Shown piece after piece: positions 16,475 to 63,771 of a stretch of DNA of 64,000 bases. The notes under the pieces are model-generated. The model made no database searches. It saw nothing but the letters and a program-made list of their open reading frames with translations, and was not told the origin of the DNA. The first letter of the stretch is position 1. Each line of letters starts with the position of its first letter. Position numbers and translations under genes: made by a program. The DNA comes from Auxenochlorella pyrenoidosa (lineage: Eukaryota; Chlorophyta; Trebouxiophyceae; Chlorellales; Chlorellaceae): NCBI GenBank assembly GCA_001430745.1, contig KQ481937.1:8177-72176 (forward strand), written 5' to 3'.

Positions 16475-19400
16475 CATGCAGGGCAGCGGCGTACAGTGCG
16501 CCTCCGCACGGCACGCGAGCAGCAGCTGCGGGCAGCGGACGCGCCGCGGCACGTTGCTGCCGCCGCTGGCGTGTCGTCGCTGCCGGCATCTAGTGCAGAC
16601 AAGGAGGCGTTGGCTGCTTACCTCAAGGTGCAGAATGGCAGCGACGTGCGCGGCGTGGCCATTGACACCAAACCGTCAGGTAAGGTGCCGCGCTTGTGTC
16701 TGCTGGCTGCTGTTCGTGTTGCCTGCTGGCATTTCTGGCCGAGGCTGCACCCGCCCCGGCCGGCAGGGGGATCCTCGGCTTATGCAGGCTCAACCTGCTG
16801 CGACGTGGTGACAGGACGAAGTTGCGCGCTCTCGTACCCATGCCAGCCCTGTTGCCGCTCCAACCTGCAGAGCCTGTCACCCTCACCCCTAGCATGATGT
16901 TCTTCATCGGCCAGGCCTTTGCCGGTGGGTTGTGGGGCTGATGTTGTGTTGCTTGGGGCTGTATGAGCGAGCTGGTTGGAGTTATTGGTTGGGCTAAGGC
17001 TGCGGTGGTGCTGCGGTTGTGTGGCTGCTGCAGGAGAGCCCATATGCTGCCTTGCCTGACTGCCGTTCTCAACCCTGCACCCTCACCTGTTTTTCACTCC
17101 ACACCCTGCTCCCCCCGCCCACCGCCCCACCGCCCGACACACAGAGTGGCTAGCCGAACGCAAGGGCAAGCCGCCCAGCGCGCTGCGGGTGTCCATCGGG
17201 CGCGACCCCCGCCTGTCCTCGCCGCTCATGGCCGCCAGCCTGGCGGCGGGGCTGGCCGCGGCGGGGGTGGCCGTCGGCCGCTTTGGCGCCTGCACCACGC
17301 CCGCCATGTTTATGAGCTGCATCCTGCCAGGTGGATGGGGATCGGGCGCGGCACAAGCTAACTGGGCTTGGGGTGCGAGCAAGGTGCACGTTGGCAGGAC
17401 CCCAGGGTGCTGCCTGCTCAGTGGTGCACCTTGCGAGGTGCGTTTGGTGTACGTATCGCGATCCAAATGGGACGACACAGCCCCTGCATCACTTCTGCTG
17501 CTGCCCTGCTGTCCTGTACCCCACTGTGGCTGCTGCCCTGCAGGCCACCTGTACGACGGCGCCGTGATGATCACCGCCAGCCACCTGCCAGTCAACCGCA
17601 ACGGCGCCAAGTTCTGCACAGCAGACGTGCGCGCCCTGGCTTTTGGGCCCTCCCTTTTGTGCGCCGCATGCCCGATCCCGGCACCTGCTTCTGAGTTTAC
17701 AGCAACTGGTGCCGGGATTGGCCTCTCAGGGCTTGCCAGGATTCATGGCTGCCTGTCCATCACGGCCCTGCGCAACTGTTTGAACCCGGCGTTGAGCAGG
17801 CGCGCAGCTGTCACGGTATTCCTCGTGTTGCTTCACAGAGGCGCCACGGCCGGGCCGCTTGCCCTGCAGGGCGGCCTGGAGAAGAAGGAAATCACGTCGC
17901 TGCTGGTGCGCGCGGCTGAGCTGGCAACCGAGGCGGGGCAGCTGCCGGCCGACCGCTTCAACGACCATGCATTCGTGATCACGGCGGCGCTGGAGGTGTG
18001 TTTGTGTGTGTGTGTGTGTGGTGGGGGTGGGGGGGGNNNNNNNNNNNNNNNNNNNNNNNNNNNNNNNNNNNNNNNNNNNNNNNNNNNNNNNNNNNNNNNN
18101 NNNNNNNNNNNNNNNNNNNNNNNNNNNNNNNNNNNNNNNNNNNNNNNNNNNNNNNNNNNNNNNNNNNNNNNNNNNNNNNNNNNNNNNNNNNNNNNNNNNN
18201 NNNNNNNNNNNNNNNNNNNNNNNNNNNNNNNNNNNNNNNNNNNNNNNNNNNNNNNNNNNNNNNNNNNNNNNNNNNNNNNNNNNNNNNNNNNNNNNNNNNN
18301 NNNNNNNNNNNNNNNNNNNNNNNNNNNNNNNNNNNNNNNNNNNNNNNNNNNNNNNNNNNNNNNNNNNNNNNNNNNNNNNNNNNNNNNNNNNNNNNNNNNN
18401 NNNNNNNNNNNNNNNNNNNNNNNNNNNNNNNNNNNNNNNNNNNNNNNNNNNNNNNNNNNNNNNNNNNNNNNNNNNNNNNNNNNNNNNNNNNNNNNNNNNN
18501 NNNNNNNNNNNNNNNNNNNNNNNNNNNNNNNNNNNNNNNNNNNNNNNNNNNNNNNNNNNNNNNNNNNNNNNNNNNNNNNNNNNNNNNNNNNNNNNNNNNN
18601 NNNNNNNNNNNNNNNNNNNNNNNNNNNNNNNNNNNNNNNNNNNNNNNNNNNNNNNNNNNNNNNNNNNNNNNNNNNNNNNNNNNNNNNNNNNNNNNNNNNN
18701 NNNNNNNNNNNNNNNNNNGTGTGTGTGTGTGTGTGTGTGTGTGTGGGGGGGGGGGGGCGATGGATGCTGCTTGGGCAAGGGGCCCATCGCGGCGCGTTGC
18801 GGGGGTGGGCCTGCAGGGACTCCCCAGCCTGCTGGCCCAAGTGCAGCAGGGGCACAGGTGGGGCCTGTGCTGGCGGCGCGGGAACTTGCATGCTGCCGCT
18901 TTTTCCAGGGCGTCTGCCTGGCTGGGTTCAACGGCAGGCCACCAGCCGCCTACAAACCATCCCGAGTGCTTACAAGTCAGTTACAAGACACTCGCCTGCG
19001 GTGCCTGCAGGCCAGCAACGAGCTGGCGCGGGTTGTGGACTTCTTGCCGGTGAGGCTCTGGACTGGCTGCGGCTCCTCGCTTGTATTTGGCACCCAGCTG
19101 GCGCCAGGGGGGAGAGGGGGCGAGCAGCTGTTGACGTCACCACCCACAGCACCCAGCTCCTCTGAATGCCTGGGGCCCCCTGGCGCCCCGCCACCCCCTG
19201 CAGGAGTATGCGGCCTACCTGCGGGAGCTGATGAAGGAGAGCATCGCGCACCCGCAGCACCCAGACGCGCCGTTGACCGGCCTCAAAATCGTGGTCAACC
19301 CCGGCAACGGCGGCGGCGCCTTCATCGCGGACCAGGTGGGTGGGTCTAGTCTGGTCTAGTCTTACAACTTAACGCCACCCTAGAGAGGCCCCAAGGCGGG

Positions 19401-22400
19401 TGGGTGAGGCAGAGCGAGCGGGCAGGGGCGGGGCCGGGGTCGAGCGTGGGGCAGCAGCAAGCTCGCCACGGCAGTCGGGACCGCGTAAAGACCAAGGGAA
19501 CGGTGGCCATTTTGACGACGCTGAGACTGGCAGTGGCGGCGCAGGCGTCGCCCGCCCGCGCAGCGTGCGCGGCATGCTGCCTGCCCCGTCCCATGCCCTG
19601 CCCACCCACCCGCCCTTGTGCTGTGCAGGTGCTGGGCCCGCTGGGCGCTGACGTGTCTGCCAGCATCCACCTCGAACCAGGTGGGCACGCCAGCTCAGCA
19701 TGGCACACGCAGCCGCGCCACCGGTCGCGGCAGGCAGCATGCGCTGGCAGGCACCCCCGGTTGCAGTCTCCAGGCATGGCAGTGCAGGCAGCCGTCCTGG
19801 TTGGGCGCCCCCCCCCTCCTGCCCCCTCGCGCGCACTTCATCCCCCTTTGCGCTATCCCCCCTCGCTCCATCCTGCCTTGCTCCATCCCGCCTTGCTCCA
19901 CCCCCCTCGCTCCATCCCCCCTCGCTCCCGCCCCCGCAGACGGCAGCTTCCCCAACCACACCCCCAACCCGGAGGACAAGGCAGCCGTGGCGGCCACCCG
20001 CAAGGCCGTGCTCGACTCGGGGGCAGACCTTGGCATCATGCTGGACACAGATGTGGACCGCTCGGGGGTGGTGGACCGCGCCGGCACAGGTGTGTGTGTG
20101 TGCCTGTGCCAGGTTTGGGGGGAGGGCGCGGGGCGAGGCGCACCTGTGGGGCCTCGCCTCCCTGAGGCATTTTGTTGGCCACTGGGCAGCTGCCCTCTCA
20201 GGTCGCGGCCCTGCTGCAGCTGGGGCATACCGCAAAGGGTGCGCCCACCCGTCGGTGGCTGGCAAGGCTCCCCAAAGGGCCTCACGCTGCCCCCGCCTGC
20301 CCTCTCCCTGGTCATTCATCGCGGGGGCCGCACACCTGGGCCCCGGGCTCACCCTGCGCGCCCTGCCATGACAGCTCTTAGGCCCCCTGTATTCCCCACC
20401 CCTCGCCTCCCTGCCTCCCGCCCCCTGCCGGCCGCCAGGCATCAACCGCAACCGGTACATCGCCCTCATGGCGGCCATCACGCTCAGGGAGAACCCCGGG
20501 GAGACGATTGTCACCGACTCGTGCACCTCCAACGGCCTGGCCACCTTCATCCAGCAGCTGGGGGGGCGGCACTTCCGGTGGGTGGGGGGCAGATGCTCCT
20601 TGGGACGAGGAAGGTGTTTGTGGTGTGTGTGTGTTTGGTGGGCGGGGCTTGAGAGAGGCGCCAACCCGTGCACCTCAAGCCTGCGGCGGCTGGCGACAGC
20701 TGCGCCAGGCGCAGCCCAGGCTGGCACTCCCCGCTGCCTGCACACCTCGTTGCGGCCATGTATGATGGCCGCACAGTGACACCGCCGGCAGCAGCAACCC
20801 AGCGTTCCTCGCTGCCACGCCCGTTGCCCGTCACCGTCGCCCTAACCCCCGTTCCTGCGCCCGCCTGCAGGTACAAGAAGGGCTACAAGAACATCATCAA
20901 CAAGGGGGTGGAGCTGAACCAGGCGGGGGTGCCCTGCCCCCTGATGATGGAGACGAGCGGGCACGGCGCCATGCGGGTGCGTGCCGCGCCCACGTCGGCG
21001 GGGCAGGCTGTGGCTGGGACCTCGCAGCCGAGGCCAACGCTTCTGATGCCGCGCGGGGGGAGGCAGCGAGCCCTGAAGCCTGTGGCCACTTGCCGGCACG
21101 CGCATGAGGGAGGGCCTTCGAGCCCAACCCGGCCAAAAGCGGGCGCCTGAGTCCCACTGCGCAGCGCGCTTCCCGCCCCCGCCCCCCACCCCCCACCCGC
21201 ACACACACACGCACACACACACACACGCACACAAACGCACACAAACGTGACCGGGCGGGGGGTGGGCCCTGCTCTTCACACACACACACACACACTCACA
21301 CGCGCGCACACAAACGTGACTGGGCGGGGGGGGGCGTGCTCTTCACACACACACACACACACACACACACCACCCCACCCCCTTCAGGAGAACTACTACC
21401 TGGATGACGGCGCCTATGGCGCGCTCAAGATTGTGATCGAGGCGGTGCGGCGGCGGCTGGAGGGCAAGGGCGACATCTCGGAGCTGCTGGCAGAGCTGCG
21501 GTGGGTGCCCTGGGCAGGCGCTGACCAAGCGGCGTGTGCACCCGAGTGTGTGCACCCGAGTGTGGGCGGGCTGGACCTTGGGCTGGCATGGAGAGGCGCC
21601 CTGCAGGGCGAGGCGCCTGCCCGCCTCGAGCCTGCCGTGCTTGGGCTGGCAGGGCGGCACGGTCGAAACCCCTGGCGCATTGCCAGCCTGCCACCCGGTG
21701 GTGGGAAGTCTGTGCGCGGCCCTCCGGGCTGCTGGCAGAGCTGTCTTTGGTGGAGGGGGCCTCCTCTGCCCCCCTCCGCATCCCCCGCTGCTGCCCTCCC
21801 CCTCATGTCCCTCAGGGAGGCGGCAGCAGCCGCAGGGACTCAAGTGGTCACCTTGGCCGAATCCCTGTGCGCGGCACCTGTCACCTGCTGTGTTGACACA
21901 CACACACACACACCGCTGCTGCCGCTCCCCCTCCTGCCGTTGTGCAGGGAGCCAGTGGAGGCGATGGAGATCCGGGTGGCCATCAGGGCTGCCGATGTGC
22001 GGGCAGAAGGGGAGCGGGTGACCGCCGCCTTCAAGGAGTGGGTGGACGCAGGTGGGCTGGGTCAGGCGGCGGGCAGGGCCAGGTTGGTGCGTGGCAGGGA
22101 GGAAGGGACGGTGCAACGGCCCGCAACAGGAGCGGCTGCAGCCCTGGCTCAAAACCATGGTGCCCCTCTGCAGCAGCGGCGCCTGTGCACGCTTGGCGGC
22201 TGTCTGGCCGGCCGTGCCTGCACTGCGTGCGATCTTGTTTTGCGGTGTGCGCCATGCCATGCAGGGTGCGGCGGCGCCACGCACTGGCGGCTGGAGGACG
22301 AGAATTACGAGGGCTGGCGGCTGAAGGTAGGGCGGCGCCGCTGCCCTCATGCACTCCGTGTATCGACCTTCCCAGCCCTGCGCTCAGCTTGCAGGGGCCG

Positions 22401-39101: not shown

Positions 39102-42100
39102 CTAGCGTCCGTCGCGGCTGCCGCTCTGCTGCGCAGGCGGCTGCCCGGGCGCCGCCGCCGCTGCCGCTGCTGCTGCGACGCTGCTGGCATGCTGCTGCAC
39201 ATCAAAGTCAAGCCCCACCGGCAGGGCGCCGCTGCTGAAGGGGCTCACAAGCGCAGCAGCGGGGGGGCGGGACGCGCTCCTGACGCCTCCCGTGGCCTCG
39301 CCGCCCTGGGCCGGGCCGCTCTCTGCGGCCGGCGCCTGCTCGGCGAAGGGCGACGGCGCCTTGGCGGGCGCGGCGGACGTGCCCACTGGCATTGGCAGGG
39401 CGGCGCTGGCGGCAAAGGGGGAGGCCTGCACCGGCGGCGGCGGCGGGTGCGACAAGCTGGCCGCGGCTTCTCGGCTGGACCGCACAGCCACGGCCGACGG
39501 CGGCTGTGCAGGGCGCTGCTGCCGCTGCGCAGACGTGTCGGGCACCGTCTCAGAGCGCTGCAGGACAAGGGGGCGTGCAGGGAGCACAGCCTTGGTCAGC
39601 AGGCAGGCGTCTGTGGCAAACACTGCAGGCGTGCAACCTTCATTACGCCCTAGAAAAGCTGCAGAATGAGGCGCGCAGGCCGCAGCGCGAGGTGCTTTTC
39701 CAGCGCCATTAAATGTGCTGCAACGAACCGGCTGCAGCCGCGCTCCTGCCCTGCATGGCCCTTGCGCCGCCCTGCCGGCCCTGCCCATCTGTGCATGCCA
39801 TGCCAGTCCAGAGGGGGGGCTGCCCAACCCATAGACCGACAGACGTGGGCGCCGTCACCAGTCCAGGGCCCCTCAGCGGGTGCGCGCTGCTCGCCCGTAC
39901 ANNNNNNNNNNNNNNNNNNNNNNNNNNNNNNNNNNNNNNNNNNNNNNNNNNNNNNNNNNNNNNNNNNNNNNNNNNNNNNNNNNNNNNNNNNNNNNNNNNN
40001 NNNNNNNNNNNNNNNNNNNNNNNNNNNNNNNNNNNNNNNNNNNNNNNNNNNNNNNNNNNNNNNNNNNNNNNNNNNNNNNNNNNNNNNNNNNNNNNNNNNN
40101 NNNNNNNNNNNNNNNNNNNNNNNNNNNNNNNNNNNNNNNNNNNNNNNNNNNNNNNNNNNNNNNNNNNNNNNNNNNNNNNNNNNNNNNNNNNNNNNNNNNN
40201 NNNNNNNNNNNNNNNNNNNNNNNNNNNNNNNNNNNNNNNNNNNNNNNNNNNNNNNNNNNNNNNNNNNNNNNNNNNNNNNNNNNNNNNNNNNNNNNNNNNN
40301 NNNNNNNNNNNNNNNNNNNNNNNNNNNNNNNNNNNNNNNNNNNNNNNNNNNNNNNNNNNNNNNNNNNNNNNNNNNNNNNNNNNNNNNNNNNNNNNNNNNN
40401 NNNNNNNNNNNNNNNNNNNNNNNNNNNNNNNNNNNNNNNNNNNNNNNNNNNNNNNNNNNNNNNNNNNNNNNNNNNNNNNNNNNNNNNNNNNNNNNNNNNN
40501 NNNNNNNNNNNNNNNNNNNNNNNNNNNNNNNNNNNNNNNNNNNNNNNNNNNNNNNCTCGGTTTCCTTGCCTTGGTTTGAACTGTGCTAATGCGCTGCGCA
40601 TCAAGAGGCACACACGTGCCGACGCTGCTGCACAACTTCTTGGCCAGCGTGACCGCCTCCTGGTTGGACATGACGTCCCACAGCCCGTCGCTGGCCATGA
40701 CCAGCACCTCGTCGCTGGGGTGCCGCGCAATGATGGTGACCTGCGGGGGGGGCGGGGGGCGGGCGCGGCGGGGAGGGCGCGGTGGGAAGCGGGCCGGCCG
40801 GGAGCAGCAGCGCGGGCGGCTGCAGCGAGGGCGGGGCTGCCATTCCGGGCTTCGCCACGCAATGGCGCCCCGCAAGGTGATGCAGCACCCGACAGAGAGC
40901 AGGACACATTGCAGCCGCAGAACCGGCTGGGCGTGCTCACAAGCTGTGGCAGCACATGCCCGCCCGCCCACCAGCCGCCCACGACAGCGCTCACCTCGGG
41001 CTCCGCGATGACGTATGGGCGCAGCGAGTGGTCGCCAATGGCCCGCGACACAGCCAGCAGGCCCATCACGCGCACGCCGTTCCAGAACAGGATCTGCCCG
41101 CCCGCCGCCTCCACGCGCGCCTGCAGGGGGGGAGGCCAAAGCAGGAGGAGAGGAGTGGGCGGGCAGGACAGCACGGGCTGGTGCGCCGCCATGCAGGCGC
41201 CCCTCACGCCCACCACCAGCGTCGCTGTGCTGCTGCTTGTGCTCAGCGCGGCATCCGCACAGTGGCGCTGCGGCGACCAGTGCGTTATCACATCAGCAGC
41301 GAAACAGGCTGCGCCTCGCTCGCGGTCCATGTGGCCTGGGTACCAGGGAGCTCGCTGCAGAGGTGCCAACCGGCCCACGACTCATGCAGCCCCGCAACCG
41401 CCTGGCTCCCGGCCTGCCCTGTTGCGCTGGCGCCCCCAGCAGAGGACCCGGCCTTGGCACGATCCAGCACCCCGGCCTCCCTGGCGCCCTCTGATCCCAA
41501 AGCCCGGCAGCCCCGCCTGGGCGCGCGCCTTATTCCCCTCCCCCCACCCCCCACCCCACCCCACCCCCGCGCGCACCGTCTCGTCCTCCCGCGCCGCCTT
41601 GTGGTCGTCTGTGAGCGGCAGCGCGCCGCCGGAGCGGCACAGCACCGCGCGCGAGTCGCCGCAGTTGGCCACGTAGATCATGCGGGAGCCCACCAGCGCG
41701 ACCACCGCGGTGGTGCCCACCAGCGCCAGGTGCTCGTACCCGCCCATGTTGCCAAACTCCTCGTCTGCAGGTGGTGGGGGGGCAGGAGGGGGGGCCAGGT
41801 CAGAGGGAGGGGGAGGTCGGGGAGGGAACTGGTGCTGAGGTGCGCTAGGTGCACTGCCTACACATGCAGCCACCTAGTTTATTTCCCAGCTGCCCTGCCA
41901 GCAGGCCTGGGCTCACTGCACACCACGATTGCGACGCCCCACGCTGCCGGCACGCACCTGTAATGTGGAAGGCTTTTGTAAGGGCCGCTTCTATTGTCTC
42001 AGCAGTACAGGACACGCCCTGGACGCTGTTGGTGGGGTCCTCATCAAAGTCGGCATCTAGGTAGCTGCCGGCGCTGCTGCTGGAGTTCAGTTCGCCTGCA

Positions 42101-51151: not shown

Positions 51152-54100
51152 TCACCTCCTGCCGCTCCGCTGCGCCAACTGGTGCAGGGGCAGGGGGGGC
51201 ACCACAGGCCGCGCAGCCTCCCGCTCCGCCTTGCGGCGGGCCACGGTGGCGCGCCAGTGCCGCTGTATCCGCATCACAGTGATGGCCACCTGCTCGTGTT
51301 GGGCAGGGGGTGAAAAAAATGTTGCGCTGCACGCAGCAAGGGGATGCAGGGGCAGCTCTTGAGAACAGAGTTGGTGGGCTTGTCAAGCCATGCCGCGCCT
51401 TGCCTGCATGTTCATGTGCTCCTTCTCCCCGTTCTTGGGCGCGTGGCGGTTGAGGAAGCGGCGGATCATGCGGTCCAGCCGACGCTTCAGCTCGCCCTCT
51501 GCGGCTCGTGGCGGGGGAGATGGAGGCAGACACCGAGCAATGAAAGCTTTCCCTGAAAGCCCAAAGATCTACTGCTGAACGTGGGACTGAGGGACGAGCA
51601 GGCACGCCCGCATAGCAAGGCCTGCTGCCGTGCTACATAGGCGCACCCGGGATCTCAGTGCCCGTGCAGCGCATCACCAGCTCATAGGCGGTGCGGTGGA
51701 AGGGCGCAAACCCGCGGTCGTCCAGGGGAATGTCCAACCTGGCGCACAGGTGTGTGGGGGGGTGGGGGTGGGGGTGGGGGGGGGCAGCAGCGCGCTGGAA
51801 CATGAGGAAAGCAGCTTGAACCCGAGCCATGTCACGGCATGCCAGCCACCCAAGAGTGCCGGGCGCTCTGCCCCCTCACCCGAAGACAAAGCGCATAACG
51901 TCGCTGTCGGTGGCCTTGGGTCCCAGCCCCATGGGCGACGGCAGGCGGCGCAGCAGCTGCTCCATGTCTTTCGGGTCGATACTGTTGCTGCCGTCGTCGT
52001 ATTCTGCTGGGCAGCGCAGGCTTGGCAGGGGCGGGAACTGAGGGCACTGCAAGACTTGATGTAACAGCAGCACAACTGCCCAGTCAGACCAAGCAACATG
52101 GCATCGACGGTTGAGAGCTCGGGCACTCCTTTGAGACGAGAAAAGCAGCAGAGAAGACAGCTGACCGCAGCGTCAACTTCCACTTCCTATCGCCGCTCAC
52201 ACCACGTGGCCGCCAGCGCTCACCTGCCCACAGCTCCACGAAATCCTGCAGCAAGGGCAGCGATGAAGGCAATTTGCAAGCATGCTAGAGCGCGCTGCTG
52301 AGCATAAGGCAGGCCAAAAGGCAGCAGCCTGCAGCCTCCCATTCCTTTCCCTGTGAGGCTTCAGGCAGCGTGCCTCTAGATGCTGTGGCGTCAAAGTCCA
52401 GTTGGCGGTGTCCTGAATCTTCTCGAAAGTCTGCAGGGCTTTTGTGCGTCGCACGCTTGGAAAACAGAGGTGGCAGCTGCCCTGCCTGGGCGACCTGCTT
52501 GGCAGGACCTGCGCAGCAATGCGCAGCAGTGCGCGGACCTGGCCCCTGGCCACAGCCTGCGCCCACCTCCAGCTGCACCGTGACCAGCAGGTTGAGTGCA
52601 ATCATGGCCCCCGCCAGGTAGAAAGCAAAGAAGTAGGCGGGGGCCCAGGCGTGGCCGCAAGTGCCGGCCGCGGGGTCGCAGCTCGGCGGCTGCGCCATGC
52701 AGTCCTGCAGCAGCACCGCCCAGTTGTCGCCGGTGGCCACGCGGAAGAGCAGCATCAGGGCGCGCGGGAAGGAGGTGAAGTTGGCGTGCTCGTTCAGGTC
52801 CTCCTGCCAGACCACCTGCCCAAACAGCTGCACACCTGCGGGGCAGGAAGCAGGGGGGGAGGTGTGCCCAGGTGGCAAATGCAGGGGTCTGCCCAGAAAA
52901 CAGACTGCACGAGGCACACTGCGCAATGCATGATTCCTTTCTGCATGCCTGCCCGCCTGCATGCCAGCCTGCTTGTCCGCCGCCCTGCTGCTCTGATCGA
53001 GACGCCCAGCCACTCACCCATGTAGGCAAACACGAAGAACAGCAGGAAGAGCAGGGCGCCGACGTTGATGATGGCCGGCAGCGAGATGACCAGCGTGCTG
53101 AGCAGCATCTGGATGCCCTGCAGCAAGCCAGGCGAGGTGAGGCAGCACACGGTTGGGTACGCGCGGCCCCAACCCAAAGATCTGCGCGAGCCCAGCGGCA
53201 GCGCGGCCCACCTTGGAGTGGCGCAGCAGGCGGAACATGCGCAGCACGCGGGCCAGCATCATGATCTTCTTAAACGCGCCGAGGTCTACCACGGTGCCTG
53301 CCGCTGCATTGGCAACCTGGGTTGCGAGGTCGGCAGCTGCCGCCAGAGAAAGCGCGACATCCTGCAGGCAGGTAAATTGCGGCGGCAGAGCGTCGGGGCT
53401 GGCCAAGCACATGGCGCACCCAAAGAACCCACTCAATCAATCAATCAATTACATTTATTGTCCCACTGCACGAGTGTCTCCCTCGTTTGACTGTCTTTCC
53501 CTTGCTGCGACACACAGGCGTCTCCACCTTACTCTCACCAGCTTGTTCCAGTTGGAGCGCCAGTAGAGCCGCGGCCCCATGGCTGTCAGCTTGATTGCAA
53601 GCTCCAGAATGACCAGCGCAGAGAAGGCGGTGTTGAGCACCTCTTGCGCTGCAGGTGCACGTGCACAGAAGGCAGGCATGACCTTGACTGGGGACTTCTG
53701 TCCTGGATGCCCTGCAGTGCACCCTCTGGGCTGGCGCAGACGGCGGGGCGCTGCCTTCCCCTCACCATGCGCAAGTCCCGCTGGCTCGCCGTAGAAAGTG
53801 GTGGCGGTCAGCAGAATGTTCAACTGCAGGGCACGGGCACAAGCATGAGCATGAGCACAGTCAAAGCACTCTGCCGCCAAGGGGTGGAGCCGATGGCACC
53901 TATCAGGAGGCCGCATGCTTCGCCTGCTGCTCAGCGGCTCCTCACAATGATGGTGCACAGCATGAAGCGGTCAAACCAGGGATTGTACGCCAGGAGGAAG
54001 AACGAGCGACGCAGCCGGCTCTCGGGCATCGGAGCAACATCAAGCGGCTTGAGCCTGCAGCATGGAGAGCATTTATGAAGCTGGCGGCAGGCCCACAGCA

Positions 54101-57100
54101 GGCGTCTAGAGTCTCGTCTGCAGCTGCTGGCAAGCATAGGCGAAGACACGCATCTCTCAAGCACTGCACCTGAACACTGCCCGCAGCATTTCCACATGGC
54201 CCTGCAAGGTGGTTGCGACGGGCGTGTCAGCAGCAAGGGCCGTATGCTGTGCTTGCCACACGATGAGGTGACGCAGCGTGGCCAGCATGGCAGCGTTGAG
54301 GCGTACCGTCTGGCTGGCGGTCAGCAGTGTGCTTCCCGTCTCGCTGAGGGATTTCAGCCTGCACACGGGCAAAGTTGCACTTGCTGCTCACAAGAGGAGC
54401 CCGCCTGAAGCAAGGGAAGCCTTCTGGGCAGTTGCTGCAACTCAAGTGCCACGGGTCCCAGCCAGCCACCCACTCACCGCCCATACTGGAAGAACACCAC
54501 TCCAATGTACAGGTTGAGCACGAAGAAGGAGCAGAGGGTGATGAAGGCAAACCAGAATAGGAAGGCAGCCGGGTTGCTGCCAGGCTGGGGCTGCTGCCCC
54601 TCTGTGGCTCTGCTGCGGCATTGGGCACCGGTGGACATGAAGGGAACCGCCTCGGCTTGGGAGCCAAGACAGCGGCCGCACAGCTTGCCTTGCATTGGTG
54701 CACTCGTGCAGGCCCCTTGACGCAGCCAGTCTTGCTCAGGTCCCACTGGACAGCCCCCACCCACCTGGTTGCCATGCTCATGTACATGGTTGGTGTGTAG
54801 CCTGCATGACAGAGCGAGAGGAGAGGGTTGAAAGCGACGAACAAGTAAGGTCAGGTGTTGATGCCGCGCGACCACCAGTACTGCGCACCGCTGTCACAAG
54901 CTCTCTCCGCGAGGTGCTTCCTCCTCTTGGCGCAAGTTCTCATGGCATGCAGCCCGCCCAGCCAAGCTTGCAAGGCTCACCATCCAGCGTGGAGGTGATG
55001 AACAGAGTGAGCAGCGCATTGCCAATCTGCATGGCGGCCAGGCAACAAAAGCTCCCATGCATGAATCGGGGGCCGACTTTGCACAGATCATCTGCGTCAG
55101 AGTGCTGTGCAGGCTCTGCAATTCCACAGGGGCACCCATCAGCATGCTCAAGTGCAGCTCACATTGTCAAAGTTGAGCCACATGTTGGTCCACTCGCGCT
55201 GCTGCAGGTCGCCGGTGCTGGGGTCCAGGTAGGACCCCACGCAGTCACTCTGCAACGTGGGGCCGCATGCCGCAGGGAAAAGGCGCGTCGAAAACCTTGA
55301 CCTGGCCAGTCCCCGCCCTGGCAGCACGTGGTTAACAAGCCCGCCTGCCTGCGCGCACCTTGCCCGCCACGCTGGCGTCATTGCAGCTCCACAGCAGCCC
55401 CGCAAACAGCTGCACGCCAAGGATGGCGAAGATGAGGAAGACCATGCCGGCCAGCACTGCAATGGCAGCCAAGAGCGGGTGGGCAGGTGACGCAGACAAG
55501 CACAGACGAGAGTGAGCAGGGCAGGATATTCAGCGCGATGGGCGGCCAACACATTTCAACGGGGAGCTAATACCCTGCCCTGCCGCCGAGGATCACCCGT
55601 GACGTTGCCCATTGCGGCGAGGGAGCGCACAAGGGTGTGGAACACCATGAGCATGCTCTGGCTGCGGGTCAGCATGCGCAGCGGGCGCACAGCACGCAGC
55701 ACACGCAGCACGCGCAAGACCTGGGCCTGCGGGACCGCGGCCTGCACCACGAGCACTACAGACGATACCACCAGCACCCCCAGGTCCAGCTGGAGAAGGG
55801 GGGTGGGGTGGGGGGTGGGGGGCGCTGCTCTGAGGCAGGGAGAGACAAGCTTGGAGCACAAGGATGTTGCTCTGCTGCACAGTGCCCGAACCCACGCTGC
55901 CCCCACCTTATTGGTATTGAACGACAGGTAGGGCCGGAAGCCAAAGGCCACAATCTTCAGTGCCGCCTCCACACCAAACGTGGCTGTGGTGCCCACGTCG
56001 ATCCAGTGCAGCACGTGCGTGCGGTGCGCAGCAGGGTCCATGGCAGGCGTCTCCAGCGCCATCTGCAGGCAGTCCAGAACCAGGGCCAGGGCGGCAAACG
56101 CTTGAGAAGCCTTTTGCAGAGTGTTCGACCTCCAATGCTGGCAGTGCCCCGGCCCAGCGTGCTTTCTACCGGCAAGCCTTTGTGCCGGAAATACTGACGC
56201 ACCTCCACACACGACAGCAGCACCACAAGTGTGAGCAGGTAGTCGATGGCCTCCTTGGTGACAAGGCTGTAGAGCCAGCCGCGCACGGGGTTGTCCACCT
56301 GCATTGCAGGAGGGGCAACACCCGACGCAAGGTTGCTAGGGTGATGGTTAAGAAAGATCTGGCTCTGCTGCTGCTGCTGCCAGCCTGCCTCTACAGAGCA
56401 CTTCCCGCAGGGCTTTACAGCCACGTGGTGCACGCGCCCACCTTGAAAATAAAGAGCGATGTCCCCCGCAGTGGTGGGTAGTCCTTGCGGCGGCTCCTCC
56501 GCCCCGCTCGGTTGGCCAGGCGACTGAAGTGGCTGCTCACTGCTGGAAGGGAGCAGCATACGGCAGCGGCACGTGACAGAGCGCATTGTCAACGAAGAGC
56601 CGACGCTGATATCATAGCATCAATCCTGCATGGATCCATGGCTGGCAGGCACGTGCACAGTCAACGCCAGGTGAATTCCCCGCTTGATGGTCCTGGCTGC
56701 TGCTCTGGGCCACCGCCACACCTGAGGAGGCCCCGCTGATGCCGCTGAACTGCGAGTCAGAGGCTGCATCGTGCAACTCAGATGCCAGGGATTGGTCAGA
56801 GCCTCTTCGCTGCAGGGATGCCTTCCCGCATTGCTGCTGCTGTGCACTGCTGCTGCTTGCTGGGGCCCCAGCGCTTGGCAGCGCGTTTGGCTTGCCAGTG
56901 CAGTCAGGTGATGGGCCGCGGCTGTCAACCATGGAAAACGGCGTGGGGCTGCGGCTGCCGGCAACAGGAAAGGGCGTGGGGCTGCGCAGACTGCAAGGGC
57001 CTGGTGTGTCCCCACTGTATGGGGCCCCTGGGCTGGCCACGCCCTCCCCATCATCATTCTCATCTGGTACATCGAATCGCGCCCGCCTGATGGGCACCCT

Positions 57101-60100
57101 GATGGCAGGGTGGTGAGTGGTGGAGGCCTTTAGGCACGAGCCCGCCCTTTTGCTGGTGCCACACGGCGAGCCAAGCACCACGTCCTCATGCCGCTCTTCC
57201 AAGCTGTGGTTGCGCTGCGCTGTCACTGCCAACGCCCCTGGTGCTGCCCCTGACTGCATGCCCTCGAAGCGCTCCACCATGCTGCTCACGTGGCCCAGCT
57301 GTGTCGGCCCCCCTGACAGCCTTGTGCTGCTCCTGCTGCTGCTACCAGCCGCGCTGCCAGCTGCTTCCTTGGCCTCTTGCGCAGGCGCTGCCTTAATGAG
57401 CTCGCTGCCGGCACATGCATCTGACATTGCGGCAGCAGGTGCGCATGCGCGGCATGCCCCCGCTGGGCTGCAGGCCCTGACGGATGCACCTTCCAAGCCA
57501 CTGGCCCTGGCAGAAACGGCATCTCGCACTGGGCTTGCCGCTCCAGCCAGCTTTGCGGACAAGACAGCTGACAGAGTGGCTGCTGCCTGGGCGGCAGCGG
57601 CATCATTCAGAGGCGGGGGCGCGCCATCCTGGGATGCTGAGCCTTTGGTCGCCGCTGCCTCCTTTGCCGTGGCTGCCTGCTGCCACAGCTCTGGCCGGCC
57701 AACGACGCTTGCCGGCTCCAGGCTGCTTTTGACTGGCCGCCGCTGGCAGAGGCCACAGCATGAGACCAGCAGGCCTCGCAGGCTTGCCAGTGTGCTGAGT
57801 GCCCTTGTGATGGTGCCTGTACGGCACAAAGACCGTGCACCTGGTGCTCAGAATACAGGGCATGTCTGAGCATTCAGGATGGCATGTGGGGATACACAGC
57901 TGCCAGCTCCCCAACTTCCAACCTCCCCAACCTGGACAGCACCTCCAGTGGTCGTGCGAGTGACCGTGGCATAAGACTGCTCAAATGCCGCCAGGGTGAT
58001 GGACAGAAAAAGCGTTAGGATGATCCACTTGCCCACTGTCACCCAGAACACAAAGAATAGCACAGAGGGCCAGCCTGCAGCAACCGAGGGCACAGGGGAG
58101 TGGCTGGCCTTGCCGCTCTCCTCATTTGCACGGGGGCATGGTGCGCTGTTGGTCCCGGCCCTGGCCCGAGCTGCCCACCTGCAGCCGCCTGCACCTTGAA
58201 CATGATGTCCGGCCAATTCTCGAGGGTGAGAACCTGGAATACGAGACTGCATGCATTGTGCAGGGTTGGGGGTGCAAAGGGACCGAGGGATATGCCGCAG
58301 GCAATCATGGATTGGCCCCAGAGCACCTTGTTCTGCCCTGCTGCTGCAGCTGGCCACCGCCAGCCTCCCTTGCCACGCAAGCATGCAGCCATCTCACATG
58401 AAGCTGTTCCACAGGCCCAGGAAGCTGGGCAGCGGTGGGTCAAACTCCAGGGACTGCCGGCCAAACACCTGGAGGCCGATGAGCGCAAAGACAAAGATGA
58501 AGAGGACCTGCACCAGGGAAGCAGAAGCAGGGGTGGTTCTTCCTCAGCCCCCAAGGCTCCTTATCCTGGCACTGCCCTCTCATCAGCTCTGACTTGTTGC
58601 ACAGTACTGCGCCAGCAGATGCTCCATCCCTGAGCCTGGGCTGCGCCCTGCCCTCCCACCATCAGCAACGCCACTGCGAGGAACTGCCCCATGCTGCCCA
58701 TCATCACTTCCGAGATGACGCGCAGGCTGTCCAGGTAGCGAAAGATCTGCCGCAGCAGGGGACGGCGGGGCAGGGGCTAGGGCACTGCCTGCGCATTGCA
58801 GAGCTTGCAAGGCGCGGCAAGCCTGGGCGTCCCTGCGCCAGCTCACCTTGAGCACGCGCAGCACGCGAAAGGAGCGCAGGATGCGCAGGGTGCGGAACGA
58901 GCGCAGCGCATTGCCATTGGCGCCCAGCTGCAGCAGGGGTGACAGAAATGCGCGGGCGTGAACAGTGGGCTGCATGACAGGCAGGCACAGCATGTCCAGG
59001 GGTAGGCCTCTGCAGGCCGGGGCAGGGAAATGGCAGGCTGAGTAAAGGGGGTCGAGCAGCTGGGGGGCCACGCACCGTCAGAGCCATCTCTAGCAGCCCC
59101 AGCGCGACCACAAGCAGGTCAAAGGCATTGAAGGCGTCCGAGAAGTAGCCCCACACGCCGAGGCCCAGCAGCTTGAGGGCCACCTCGGCGACAAACAGCC
59201 AGGTCAGCGCCGTGGAGGCGCAGTCCAGGCCGCGCGAATAGCCGGCGCTCATGCCTGCAGCAGGGGCCAGAGGGGCAGGGTGCTGCAGCGCCAGGTGCAA
59301 CTCACCGAAGCAAACAGGTCCACCAGCGAGAGCGCAACCACGACGCCGTCAAACACGTTCATGCCGTCCTCGCAGAAGCCGGCGGCGCCGTAGCCCAGCA
59401 GCTTCAGGCAGCACTCTGCAAGGAAGACGTAGGTGAACGCCTTGCTGGCGGCATCCAGCCGGCCCCTCTTGGTGTCAGACATACCTGCGCAGGAAAAGCG
59501 AGCATCAAGGCATGTCGCCCTGTCGGTCTGGCACAGGCTGGGACTGACGTGCCCTCCACTAGAGCACTGGCAGGCCAAGCTACCGAGAGAAGCCCCACAA
59601 CCAGCAGATTCCAGGGCTGTGCATGCCAGTGAAGCAGCTGGACAAGAGTCTCTCCCCACCTGCTGTGGTCATGGCCAGAAGTACAGTGTTTCCAATGATG
59701 AGCAGCATGAAGAGCCACGTGAAAGCTGGGTGGTCAACCACCTGCAAACAAGACCAGCGTGTCGAGCCATCTTGCGGAAAGCACACAGGAGACTCTTGCC
59801 AAACGGGACTGCAGTAGCAGCTGGCTCGAATGCCAGCTTGCCACTAGTTCACGCGCCCTTCTCCCAGGAAGCTCACCTGCCTGACCCGCCACCGGAACTC
59901 AAACCAGTAGTACCCCAGCTTCCCCCTGACGCCACTGGGCGGGCCCTCTACCAGCAGTGCAGGGAGGCTGCTGCTGCTGCCCGCTGTGCCTGCCAGCAAC
60001 ATCGGGCTGACGGCCCCCGCCTGCAGAACAGAGGGGAAGAGGTCTCTGAGAGAAGCACCGTTGTCGCCAGCATGCAGATATGGCCAAAGCAAGCAGTGGT

Positions 60101-63100
60101 AGCCAGCTCGTCAGTTTGACCCATGACGACCTCCCATGCGGGAGCCACACTCGAGCCCGCATACCCTGCTCGAGGCGCGGGAGCTGGCGCGGGAGCTGCG
60201 CTGGGACATGCGCTCCTCAAACGCGCTGTGCTGGGTGTCCATGTGGCGTCGCAGCGCCGCGCGCAGGGCCTGCCAGGCAAGCACCAGGGTGCTGCGCGGC
60301 CGGCCGTGGTCGGTCACCGCCTTGGAGTACAGCGTGGTCGCGGTGGCAAACCGATGCTTCAGCACAGCCAGAAAAAGGTTGACCTGTGTGCGGATGAGCC
60401 AGGGCCGAGGCGACCAACAGCGCTGCTCAGCCGGTGCTCCATAAACACGCCCAACAGGCGCGACGAAACGCGTGGTGCCAGCTCTGCACAAGCTTGCCGA
60501 CAGCCTCTGCCCGAACTGGGCCCTGGCCCCTGGACAGCAGCCCACCACAAAGTAGCACTGCAGCAGGATGTAGAGCACGTAGAAGACGACTGGGGCCGGG
60601 CCGGAGCGGTCAATGACCAGGTAGAGCTGGTAGAAGACGTCTGTCAGCGTCGTCTGCAGGGAGGGTGGGGCAGGCGGCAGCAGGACTGTGCGCATGCCAG
60701 GCCCACCAGGCTCATGTGCAGGCGGGCACGGAGCATCTGCAAAGTGCCACACACAAGACAGCCAGCAGCAGTGAGATGCCTGGGTGGCAGGCTGGAAGGG
60801 AGGCACTCACCGCCTGGAACATGGACAGCAGGGAGAGCCCAATGTTGCCAAAGCCCGCAGTTTGCAGTGGGGGCACCAAGTGCTGCTCCTGCACATCAGT
60901 TGTGGGCGCAGGGGAGGCATCAACCAACTGCGGCAAACCCAAAGCGGTGGGAGTAAAGAGCATGCTTTCTGTGCTCCGAGAGATATTGCTTGCACGACCC
61001 TTGTACAGCGGTGCCAGCAGCACACCTTGCAGCTCATGCCCACGGGGCAGTGGTGCGCATGCGCGCCGCAGCCCCACATCTCCCCGCCAGCAGCCTCCAC
61101 CAGCCCCTCTCCAGAAAGCTCGTCCACACATCCAAAGTAGGCAGCGTCCAGGAAGAGAACTGGAGGCACATGACATTCAATGGGTTGGCTTGCAGTCTGG
61201 ACAACTAGAAGCAGGCGCCAGGTCAGCCCCCCCCCTCCCCCCAGGGATCAAATCAATTCCAAATCAGAGGCAGCGCTGGCAATGCCACGCCCTACCTGTG
61301 GCTGCGATTGCAAATAGCAGCATGAAGAAGTACAGGAGCCCAACCACGCTGATGAGCATGGGCATAGCCTGCAGGCGACAGCCAGGGAGAGGCAGGGCCG
61401 CTCCCAGTTTGTTCTGTGCAGCTGGCAGCAGCAAAAAAGCCAGCAAACCGATGATTATCAAGCACAGCACAGCCACTTGCCCACGCTGCCGTGCGCCCAC
61501 CTCGAGGAAGCAGACCACGATGGAACGCAGCGCCTCAAAGCGGGTGATTGTGCGCAGGGGGCGGAGGGCGCGCAGCGCCCGCACAGCGCGCACAGCAGCG
61601 GCGCCAGAGGCGGCGCTGGAGGTGCCCGCTGGGATGAAGGTGGTGTAGCCTGCCAGCACCATCAGGAAGTCGAACGCATTCCAGGGGCCTCTGCAGGGGC
61701 AGGATAGGGCACCGCAGCTTGCTTTCGTGCGCTGGGCTGGCAGCACAGAAGGCAGAACCAGACGAACGTCATGCCCGGCCCCACCCGCCACCCATGCCTC
61801 GCACCGCAGGTACTCGACAGGGCCTCCCGCAGCCACCACCATCAGGAGCATCTCCAGAGTGAAGAGCACATTGATTGCAATGTCTGGAGTGCAGGAGTCC
61901 AGGGCAGGGGCAGCCAGAGGATCAGTGTGGAGCGCCGAAGGCACAGCAGGCGGCCACCAGGCACGGGGGAAGGGCACGAGTTAGAGGACATTCACAACCT
62001 TCCCCGAGCCTGCATAGCAGGCATGCTGAGCCGGGGCCTAAGCCGACGACAAGTACACCTTCAACCCTGCGCGGCGCCTTCATCTGTCAACCACACACCA
62101 AGATCCTTGAGCGTCCTGTTCCAGTGGCTGTCTTCAGCCAGGGCTGGGCGATACAGGGCCAGCACTGCAGGCAATGAGAGTGGGTCAGTCAGCAGTCTGC
62201 TGCTCTTCACATCACAAGTAAGACAGAGGCCACGCTCCAAGCCCTGGCCCGTGCTTAGCTAGCTGGGTGTAAGCGGTGACCCATAGGCGTACCTATGCAA
62301 TTGAAAAGGATGACCAGGAAGACTGCCACCTGGAAGTCAGGGTGGGTGCTGAGCCGCTGCGCTGCCAGCTGCACCCGCGGCCACCAGGAAAAGCAGCGCG
62401 GCTGTGCCTCCGCCTGCTCCTCGGCAGCCGCAAGTGCGCCCGCCTGAGATCCCTGGCTGGCCTCCCCCCCACCCAGCAGCCGGCGCGCACTCCCGCCGGC
62501 GGGGGTGGACAGCCGGGAGCGCCCGCTGTCGGTGCCACCCTGCCGCCCTGTGACCAGGCGCACCAGGCCACGCGGCACCTCCACCTTGTCACCGGCCACC
62601 CGCCTCTTGATGCGCTCCAGCATCTGCTCGTCCTGCTGCCGCCGCCGGAGCTCCATGCGCCGCTCCTGTGGGGGGTAGGACCGGCGAGCACGCAGCCCGT
62701 CATGCCCTGGCATGCCTTCAAGGCCTGCAAGTTGCAGGACCCTGCCGTGCTGTTTGGCTGGCAACCATGGGCATTTGGCCACTCGGGCCCTTGGCGTCAG
62801 CACCATCCCTGCCGCGCATCCCACCCCCTCCACCTGCAGCTCCTCTGCATCCCCCTCCCAGTAGGCCTCTGCTGCCTCCAGCTCTTCCTGCAGCTCCGCG
62901 GGCTGCAGAGTCTTCAGCCGCTCATACAGTGACTGAGGGGGCATGGGGGCACGCGTGGGCAGTCTGCTGCTCATTGGAGCAGAGTCATGCTGGGCGCAGC
63001 ACTGTTCGCTCGGGGACGGCTGCTGGGGAGCGGCGGGCGGTGCTCCCTGCCTGCCAGCCACCAGCTCTTCTCCTGCAGCTGCCACCAATGGTGCAGGCAC

Positions 63101-63771
63101 CGCTGCAGGGAGTGCGGGCCGGGGGGTGTCTGGTCGTGGCCCACTGGCAGCTGCAGCTGTTGGCAGTGTGAGTCCTGCCTGTGGCACAATCTCAGCGCCC
63201 TCTGCTGCTGGAGCTGCAGCCGCTGCATTGGCCACCTGCCTGTCATCCAGCTCTGGCAGTAAATCTTCCATCTCCTGCCAGAGTTGCTGGGGCAAGCCTG
63301 CTGGCTGTTGTTCCAGCTGTGGCTCTTTACGTGGCGATGGGCTGCGTGGGCGCTGCATGTGGCGCGTCACTGGCCTGCTTGCTGCTCCCACTGTCGCAAA
63401 CATCTCCTGCGCCAGCGCTGCAGCCACGGCAGCTGCATCTGGGCGTATGCTGCCACGCGGTGGGACGCGGAGCCCATCGCCAGTCAACACCACTGGTGCC
63501 CCTGCCGCAGCCGGCCGCTCCCCCTGCACCCATGTTTGAGAAGTTTGAGCTGGTTTGTGGCATCCTGCCTGATGCGGTGGGCAGCCTGGCGGCACAGCTT
63601 TGACAGGCAGTCAGGCAGACAGGTAGCGGCCGCGGCAGCGGTTGCACCCACCTGCTCGGGCTCCGGAGCGATACGTGCGCCTCTCCCGTGGCTCAGGCTG
63701 CCGATCCCGGATCGGCCGCGGGCCAGCTTGACGGCCTGCGGGCCGTAAGCCCGTCCGGGCGAAGGCGGCAT
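51152..63771 (-). CDS. Four-domain voltage-gated cation channel (CaV/NaV superfamily), complete, with duplicated exon 14
   Basis: 42 coding exon positions resolved by splice phase; their lengths sum to 6,573 nt = 2,190 aa + stop. ATG 63771 (MPPSPGRAYGPQAVK). Domain I: S1 FQVAVFLVILFNCI, S2 AINVLFTLEMLLMVVA, S4 RAVRALRALRPLRTITRF (exon 61501-61690), pore exons 60811-60927 and 60546-60653. Domain II: S1 exon 59660-59741, S2-S3 exon 14A or 14B, S4 LRSFRTLRILRSFRVLRVLK (58847-58927), pore LVFQVLTLENWPDIMF, S6 exon 57943-58074. A 365-residue Ser/Pro-rich II-III linker is exon 56722-57816. Domain III: GTSLFIFK, S4 VLRVLRVLRAVRPLRMLTR, pore ALLTLFITSTLDGYTPTMY. Domain IV: S4 FKKIMMLARVLRMFRLLRHS, pore MLLFRVATGDNWAVLLQ. 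C-terminus has the CaV-type EF-hand-like segment (LTPQHLEDFVELWAEYDD) and an IQ motif RIQRHWRATVARRK. Plasma or flagellar/endomembrane Ca2+ (or Na+) entry is likely. The last exon could alternatively splice at an AG|GTGAGG near the stop. Confidence 0.93.
52224..52245 (-). other. Channel 22-nt microexon (DFVELWA)
   Basis: Between acceptor GCTGCAG at 52246-52252 and donor GTGAGC at 52223. It supplies DFVELWA plus one base, joining LTPQHLE (exon 52374-52430) to EYDDGSNSIDPKD (exon 51880-52003) and completing the conserved CaV post-IVS6 EF-hand-like segment. The upstream intron needs a non-canonical GC donor at 52373. Confidence 0.75.
59076..59254 (-). other. Channel exon 14B: domain II S2-S3, alternative version B
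   Basis: 179 nt; acceptor TGCTGCAG..CTGCAG|GC, donor GACG|GTGCGT; phase 1 in, phase 0 out. It encodes MSAGYSRGLDCASTALTWLF through FNAFDLLVVALGLLEMALT. It keeps the F-x2-E (LFVAE) and NAFD residues. Its YF-x2-AFNAFD pattern looks closer to generic CaV domain II than exon A. Read directly after exon A (phase 0) it gives GCA TGA, a stop at the second codon. Confidence 0.88.
59306..59484 (-). other. Channel exon 14A: domain II S2-S3, alternative version A
   Basis: 179 nt; acceptor TGCGCAG|GT, donor TTCG|GTGAGT; phase 1 in, phase 0 out. It encodes 59 codons after a split Gly: MSDTKRGRLDAASKAFTYVF through MNVFDGVVVALSLVDLFAS. It contains the S2 gating-charge-transfer residues (F-x2-E in VFLAE) and the S3 Asp (NVFD). 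27 of 59 residues are identical to exon 14B. The preceding S1 exon (59660-59741) ends in phase 1 and the following S4 exon (58847-58927) starts in phase 0, so it fits on its own. Confidence 0.88.

What the first reader, a model, noticed from the sequence alone, without database searches (positions are those of the whole stretch)
59076..59484. Mutually exclusive exon pair encoding domain II S2-S3 of an algal voltage-gated channel
Two adjacent exons, 59306-59484 (A) and 59076-59254 (B), are each exactly 179 nt, enter in phase 1 and leave in phase 0. They encode alternative S2-S3 segments with 27/59 identical residues, including the charge-transfer F-x2-E and the S3 Asp. Because 179 is not a multiple of 3, including both puts TGA at the second codon of B and skipping both frameshifts; either alone gives a 2,190-aa protein. 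Animal CaV1.2 (exons 21/22 in IIIS2, 31/32 in IVS3-S4) and NaV (DI S3-S4) use the same strategy. An independent origin in a green alga would let one gene make two voltage sensors with different gating, and I know of no report of it.
Basis: partly seen in the sequence, partly recalled or inferred. Interest (0 to 1): 0.92.

Follow-up and report, generated by a model that had tools for sequence, protein, structure and literature searches.

The report
Swappable voltage-sensor exons in green alga
A single-celled green alga's calcium-channel-like gene carries two alternative versions of one exon, built so that only one at a time fits the protein's reading frame, which would let one gene make two channels with different voltage sensors; animals use this trick repeatedly, and I saw no report of it in an algal channel.

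Summary
Exons A (59484-59306) and B (59254-59076, minus strand) are each 179 nt, enter in phase 1, leave in phase 0, and encode homologous S2-S3 segments of domain II (28 of 60 residues identical) of a four-domain, CaV-like channel gene; no second copy was found. A alone or B alone gives 2,165 aa in my model; A+B stops at B's second codon; skipping both frameshifts. The A-B intron is 51 nt, against 94-220 nt for the gene's 42 other introns. In a scan of about 160 kb, only pairs from one Cys-rich repeat region outscored this pair.

Both exon types recur in a Micractinium conductrix protein record (A 70%, B 60% identical). AU tests reject separate duplication in either species, so the pair predates their split. 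C. sorokiniana, M. tetrahymenae and one P. kessleri model show a B-like segment only.

Best explanation: mutually exclusive splicing, probably enforced by the too-short intron and backed by frame failure. There is no RNA evidence, and the M. conductrix record joins A and B in frame, which I read as an annotation artefact. Mutually exclusive exons are known in Volvox and in animal CaV channels; this is a new, apparently independent case.

The parts
59306..59484 (-). exon A (13A): end of domain II S1-S2 loop, S2, S2-S3 linker, S3; 179 nt, phase 1 in, 0 out
   Evidence: Ion_trans 1.6e-9 alone
59076..59254 (-). exon B (13B): alternative S2-S3 segment; 179 nt, same phases
   Evidence: Ion_trans 7.5e-9 alone
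59255..59305 (-). 51-nt intron between A and B, shorter than the gene's other 42 introns (94-220 nt)
59660..59741 (-). shared exon 12, domain II S1; leaves in phase 1
58847..58927 (-). shared exon 14, domain II S4 (LRSFRTLRILRSFRVLRVLK); enters in phase 0
51152..63771 (-). whole channel gene: four Ion_trans domains plus a borderline GPHH match; 2,165 aa with either A or B

Best explanation
[quoted passage not shown] SHOWN from sequence: both encode an intact domain II S2-S3 with the charge-transfer F-x2-E and the S3 Asp. Each can join exon 12 (S1) and exon 14 (S4) in frame. A+B or neither, with these splice sites, breaks the frame. The duplication is older than the split from Micractinium conductrix, and both types are still present and distinct in both species. 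INFERRED: the 51-nt A-B intron is too short for the spliceosome to use, because donor and branch point would sit too close together, so either A's donor pairs with exon 14 or exon 12's donor pairs with B. Mis-spliced A+B or skipped RNAs are frame-broken and wasted. The cell therefore makes two channels that differ only in the domain II voltage sensor, probably with different voltage dependence or kinetics, perhaps by condition or life stage.
For: Gene model and the four splice outcomes. A-B intron 51 nt against 42 others of 94-220 nt, log-length z -4.95. 36 intron lengths estimated from neighbouring Pfam rows in TCP-1 and kinesin genes of the same genome are 100-589 nt, raw gaps 88-568 (using 32 of 34 and 49 of 56 rows; the 9 rows left out give no pair that meets the criterion). 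The one smaller raw gap among them, 47 nt in a kinesin gene, is best read as the match running into a 137-nt intron. Contig pair scan. No other copy found: all 8 of 8 scored candidates lie in this gene. M. conductrix P0001 holds both types: A 39/56 and B 35/58 identical, within the 57-95% of the other exons among E3-E18 and E20-E41, and above E1 (18%), E2 (42%) and E19 (43%). Trees: the two A rows group at 97/96; AU rejects winA+winB (p 0.0095) and McA+McB (p 0.0024). The M. tetrahymenae model P0003 starts at exon B's own ATG, as if the annotator could not join an upstream exon to B (my reading). Human and fly CaV genes have ten independent such events (PMC9741552 section 16).
Against: No transcript data were available. 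The annotated M. conductrix protein contains both segments joined in frame at SLVDM|APAYAA, and the window allows a corresponding in-frame join with a 68-nt intron. Exon A is seen in only two species; C. sorokiniana, M. tetrahymenae and P. kessleri P0004 models show only a B-like segment, and their DNA could not be read. Searches did not bring up an M. tetrahymenae model holding an A exon. The trees rest on 60 columns with few well-supported forks (1 of 10 starred). dN and dS between A and B are both about 0.6 and do not by themselves show constraint.
Confidence: 0.85

Rival explanations
1. Only B is used. A is a surviving duplicate that is spliced rarely or never.
For: C. sorokiniana P0002 and P. 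kessleri P0004 models contain only a B-like segment.
Against: A keeps frame, phase, length and splice sites in the window, and its protein sequence is 39/56 identical to the A segment of M. conductrix against 42-43% for the long linker exons E2 and E19. Duplication within either species is rejected.
Confidence: 0.05
2. Both exons are included in one protein through alternative in-frame sites, giving a domain II with an extra S2-S3 pair, as the M. conductrix model is written.
For: P0001 reads S1-A-B-S4 continuously. In the window 18 GT/GC-AG combinations give open in-frame A-B joins; one (donor 10 nt before A's end, acceptor 7 nt into B, 68-nt intron) lies at the place matching the M. conductrix join.
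Against: That join uses a weak-looking donor (GTTTGC) and an AG inside B while passing over two good sites. All 18 implied introns (32-92 nt) are below the 94-nt minimum of the gene's other introns. P0001 looks like an automatic model: RRM domains fused at its N-terminus and a GAGVVVVVWWGG stretch in domain IV that resembles retained intron (my reading). I know of no channel with such a domain.
Confidence: 0.05
3. The pair mainly serves as an off-switch: inclusion of both or neither breaks the frame and lowers channel level by RNA decay, one exon acting as a poison exon.
For: A+B and skip products are frame-broken.
Against: A poison exon need not keep a protein-level S2-S3 sequence; both keep it.
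Confidence: 0.05

Closest known systems
Tandem duplicated exon substitution events of animal CaV channels (human CACNA1C/D and others; fly cacophony, Ca-alpha1D, Ca-alpha1T; PMC9741552 section 16; cac IS4 exons, PMC11828482 passages)
   Same: Adjacent homologous exons swap one segment of a four-domain channel. cac IS4A/B (99 bp each, 13 of 33 residues differ) swap a voltage-sensor segment and differ in activation.
   Different: Different kingdom, so an independent origin is inferred. Here the swapped segment is domain II S2-S3. The section read says all ten human and fly events affect different exons but does not list their positions in the text, so I could not check whether IIS2-S3 is among them.
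Volvox carteri cyn23 mutually exclusive exons 4/5 (PMC4378016, section 10 read)
   Same: Green alga; two exons of equal length (106 nt), not divisible by 3; both isoforms confirmed by RT-PCR.
   Different: A cyclophilin with 13 residue changes, not a channel; the section read says nothing on conservation of the pair in other species.
CaV channels by sequence (CaV2.2, PDB 7mix, whole-sequence E 3.6e-69 with the B form of domain II)
   Same: Four Ion_trans domains, GPHH match, domain II aligns best to domain II of CaV2.2.
   Different: Filter reads T/E/D/D rather than E/E/E/E.

Membership tests
Mutually exclusive tandem-duplicated exons | Adjacent exons homologous to each other | tested here: met
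   28/60 residues identical; both match the same Ion_trans stretch
Mutually exclusive tandem-duplicated exons | Same length and phase, either one fits the flanking exons | tested here: met
   179/179 nt, phase 1 to 0
Mutually exclusive tandem-duplicated exons | Both or neither is not productive | tested here: met
   first stop at codon 860 with both, 877 with neither; 18 in-frame escapes exist with other splice sites
Mutually exclusive tandem-duplicated exons | A physical bar to joining the two (here a short intron) | tested here: inconclusive
   51 nt against 94-220 nt; whether this alga's spliceosome can use 51 nt is not known
Mutually exclusive tandem-duplicated exons | Transcripts hold one or the other | not testable with these tools
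   no RNA data
Mutually exclusive tandem-duplicated exons | Both exons conserved in relatives | tested here: met
   M. conductrix P0001 has both; duplication older than the split; one other species only, by protein record
Four-domain voltage-gated cation channel (CaV/NaV type) | Four Ion_trans domains, S4 arginines | tested here: met
   S4 of domain II
CaV proper | Acidic E/E/E/E selectivity filter | tested here: not met
   T/E/D/D; domain I position not acidic. I call it CaV-like, not a CaV
CaV proper | Post-IVS6 GPHH/IQ region | tested here: met
   GPHH 26.9 bits against a cut-off of 26.8, so borderline; the IQ-like stretch was seen by eye only

The most novel reading that the evidence does not exclude
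The pair is an ancient voltage-sensor switch of the Chlorellales: it predates the split from Parachlorella, where the two types now sit in two near-adjacent genes (006719 A-like, 006721 B-like), so that the same choice is made by splicing in one lineage and by gene duplication in the other.
Probability: 0.2. Interest if true: 0.85.

Novelty: new variant of a known kind. Interest (0 to 1): 0.7.

Why it matters
[quoted passage not shown]). A conserved case in a single-celled green alga would show that the pressure to tune voltage sensors by splicing does not need tissues, and would give a channel whose two sensors can be compared directly in one small organism.

Tried and rejected
Assembly or allele artefact: rejected, since A and B differ at 32 of 60 residues and both recur in M. 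conductrix. Recent duplication in this genome: rejected by AU. Other copies in the genome: none among the 8 scored candidates. Searches for the locus in prokaryote genome contigs (none; six bacterial or archaeal loci at 26-32% identity) and viral contigs (none) did not help. Protein searches: 86 hits, 1,992 candidates; 19 hits; 30 hits; in the last two only the 7,995 and 7,997 candidates sharing most words were scored. I hoped these would show an A-bearing M. tetrahymenae model and more Chlorella models; they did not. P0132, an unnamed 532-aa record of a near relative, covers only the end of domain II and the linker. No branch-point motif could be recognised in the introns. A 47-nt gap between two kinesin rows looked like a short intron but is best explained by a 137-nt one. 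No structure prediction was run.

Rows chosen: the S2-S3 tree used 13 rows: window A and B, P0001 A and B, P0002, P0003, P0004, P0093, P0007, P0087, P0088, P0092, P0006. The other hits (ciliates, animals, unnamed records, P0005) were left out. One search printed comparisons for the first 12 of the 86 hits only. One search used the gene model (2,256 aa), in which E2 and E29 still held an intron each; one search corrected this. One search's first model had two one-base errors, corrected.

Full report
WHAT IS THERE. The minus strand from 63771 to 51152 encodes a four-domain channel. Domains I to IV each match Ion_trans (6.6e-42, 1.8e-47 with A or 3.2e-45 with B, 2.4e-48, 1.2e-50), with a GPHH match behind domain IV just over its cut-off. 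I built the exon model by eye from splice sites and frames and refined it against M. conductrix: 2,165 aa with exon A or with exon B. No other copy was found in the genome (51.6 Mb, 65 contigs): all eight scored matches to domain II lie in this gene, as do the six Ion_trans matches. Only the best candidates are scored there, so remoter kin could be missed.

THE PAIR. A is 59484-59306 and B is 59254-59076. Both are 179 nt, both start by completing a Gly codon begun in exon 12 and end on a codon boundary before S4 exon 14. Translated: GMSDTKRGRLDAASKAFTYVFLAECCLKLLGYGAAGFCEDGMNVFDGVVVALSLVDLFAS and GMSAGYSRGLDCASTALTWLFVAEVALKLLGLGVWGYFSDAFNAFDLLVVALGLLEMALT, 28 of 60 identical, with F-x2-E in S2 and the S3 Asp in both. 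A+B stops at codon 860, the second codon of B; skipping both stops at 877.

IS IT MORE THAN CHANCE. I listed pairs of stretches on both strands of contig C1 (160,374 non-N bases of 210,298) that start after AG, end before GT, have equal length (75-330 nt) and phase, are open, and lie 30-500 nt apart, scored by BLOSUM62. The exact pair scored 118 (27/59), and a variant with both ends 4 nt further scored 122. Five clusters scored more (213, 203, 183, 127, 124), all in one Cys-rich repeat region at C1 118-120 kb; 78, 75 and 53 lay in or at the edge of that region, and everything else was 50 or less. Openness alone is weak: 290 of 824 intron-derived stretches are open too.

THE SHORT INTRON. The intron between A and B is 51 nt. 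The other 42 introns of the gene are 94-220 nt, mean 140. From gaps between neighbouring Pfam rows I estimated 36 introns in TCP-1 and kinesin genes of the genome at 100-589 nt (32 of 34 and 49 of 56 rows used, the other 9 giving no qualifying pair). A 47-nt raw gap in one kinesin gene proved to be a match running into what reads best as a 137-nt intron, although a 41-nt open join can also be drawn there. An intron too short for donor and branch point to be used together is a classic steric way to make exons mutually exclusive (recalled from animal alpha-tropomyosin; not checked in a paper here). I found no recognisable branch-point motif, so this step stays inferred.

RELATIVES. The best hits are Chlorellales: P0001 M. 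conductrix, P0002 C. sorokiniana, P0003 M. tetrahymenae, P0004 P. kessleri. P0001 carries both types one after the other: A-like 39/56 and B-like 35/58 identical to the window's, against 57-95% for the other exons among E3-E18 and E20-E41, 42-43% for E2 and E19, and 18% for E1. P0002 and P0004 carry one segment, closer to B (68% and 50% to B; 52% and 40% to A). P0003 begins at exon B's ATG and is 88% identical to B. The tree of 13 S2-S3 rows joins the two A rows (97/96), its only starred fork of 10. AU tests reject a duplication private to the window species (p 0.0095) or to M. conductrix (p 0.0024). One clade of all Chlorella-clade A and B rows is not rejected (p 0.21), and neither is a B + P0004 clade (p 0.42). 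So the pair arose before those two species parted and both members were kept in both.

AGAINST. The M. conductrix record joins A and B in one reading frame (SLVDM|APAYAA). Taken literally, this would be a domain with two S2-S3 pairs. The window permits a matching join with a GTTTGC donor and an AG inside B (68 nt), one of 18 open in-frame joins when any GT or GC donor is allowed. I read the record as an automatic model forced to keep frame, because it also carries RRM domains at its N-terminus and a stretch in domain IV that looks like retained intron, but I could not see its evidence. The record is called 'isoform A', which hints at other isoforms; I could not retrieve them. Exon A is known from two species only.

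A LEAD. P. kessleri has a second gene model, 006719 (P0093), two numbers from 006721 (P0004). Its S2-S3 shares GMN.FD and SLVD with A and groups with A at 83/81 (not starred), though plain identity is 45% to A, 43% to B and 48% to P0004. Matches of P0093 to P0004 against matches to the window (B form), segment by segment: N-terminus 43/62 v 32/62; domain I pieces 36/54 v 33/54, 18/28 v 18/28, 36/54 v 23/54; S1 25/41 v 26/41; S2-S3 29/60 v 26/60; S4 23/29 v 24/29; pore 23/31 v 15/31. So most of the gene looks like a Parachlorella duplicate, while its domain II sensor is as far from P0004 as the window's is. This fits, without proving, an ancient exon pair later shared out between duplicated genes, an outcome described for animal CACNA1F/CACNA1S (PMC9741552 section 12).

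WHAT IS KNOWN. Volvox cyn23 has RT-PCR-proven mutually exclusive exons of 106 nt each (PMC4378016 section 10). Human and fly CaV genes have ten independent tandem-exon events, all in different exons (PMC9741552 section 16), and the cac IS4 pair differs in activation (PMC11828482, passages). Searches for mutually exclusive exons with green alga (19 papers, 18 listed), with Chlorella (6 papers), with ion channel and Chlamydomonas (none), and for three of four terms mutually exclusive / alternative splicing / Chlorella / voltage-gated calcium channel (136 papers, 20 listed) showed no algal channel case in titles or abstract starts. Of these I saw passages of PMC12702839, PMC7534427 and PMC12862383, none of which showed a channel case. 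Microalgal splicing surveys in the listings (Haematococcus PMC6330051, Dunaliella PMC5322580) were not opened. Seven further searches failed, and the library holds open-licence papers only.

VERDICT. A real, structurally complete exon pair with the marks of mutual exclusion in the domain II voltage sensor of an algal CaV-like channel, conserved in a second species; mutually exclusive splicing at 0.85. The step from anatomy to either-or splicing and to different gating awaits RNA and electrophysiology.

Noticed in passing
window 51152-63771, pore exons: The selectivity filter reads T/E/D/D over domains I-IV. The domain I position that is Glu in the animal CaV rows is Thr, Ser or Ala in the window and in 7 of 7 relatives P0001, P0004, P0006, P0007, P0087, P0088, P0092; the more distant P0005 has Glu; P0002 and P0003 do not cover it.
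   Followed up: partly
P0093 and P0004 (Parachlorella kessleri 006719 and 006721): Two near-adjacent paralogues of the channel; the S2-S3 of P0093 groups weakly with exon A, that of P0004 is closer to exon B.
   Followed up: partly
own contig C1 118-120 kb (outside the window): Tandem Cys-rich units of about 40 aa (YKPCKGGCIPEGTCCTDP...), several bounded by AG and GT with equal length.
   Followed up: no
window 18001-20000 and 40001-42000: Two stretches with GC 0.457 and 0.507; the other 2-kb blocks of the window are 0.622-0.727.
   Followed up: no
window 52374 and 51404 (ends of exons 36 and 40): Two introns of the channel gene appear to use GC rather than GT donors (GAG|GCACGC, CAG|GCAAGG).
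   Followed up: no
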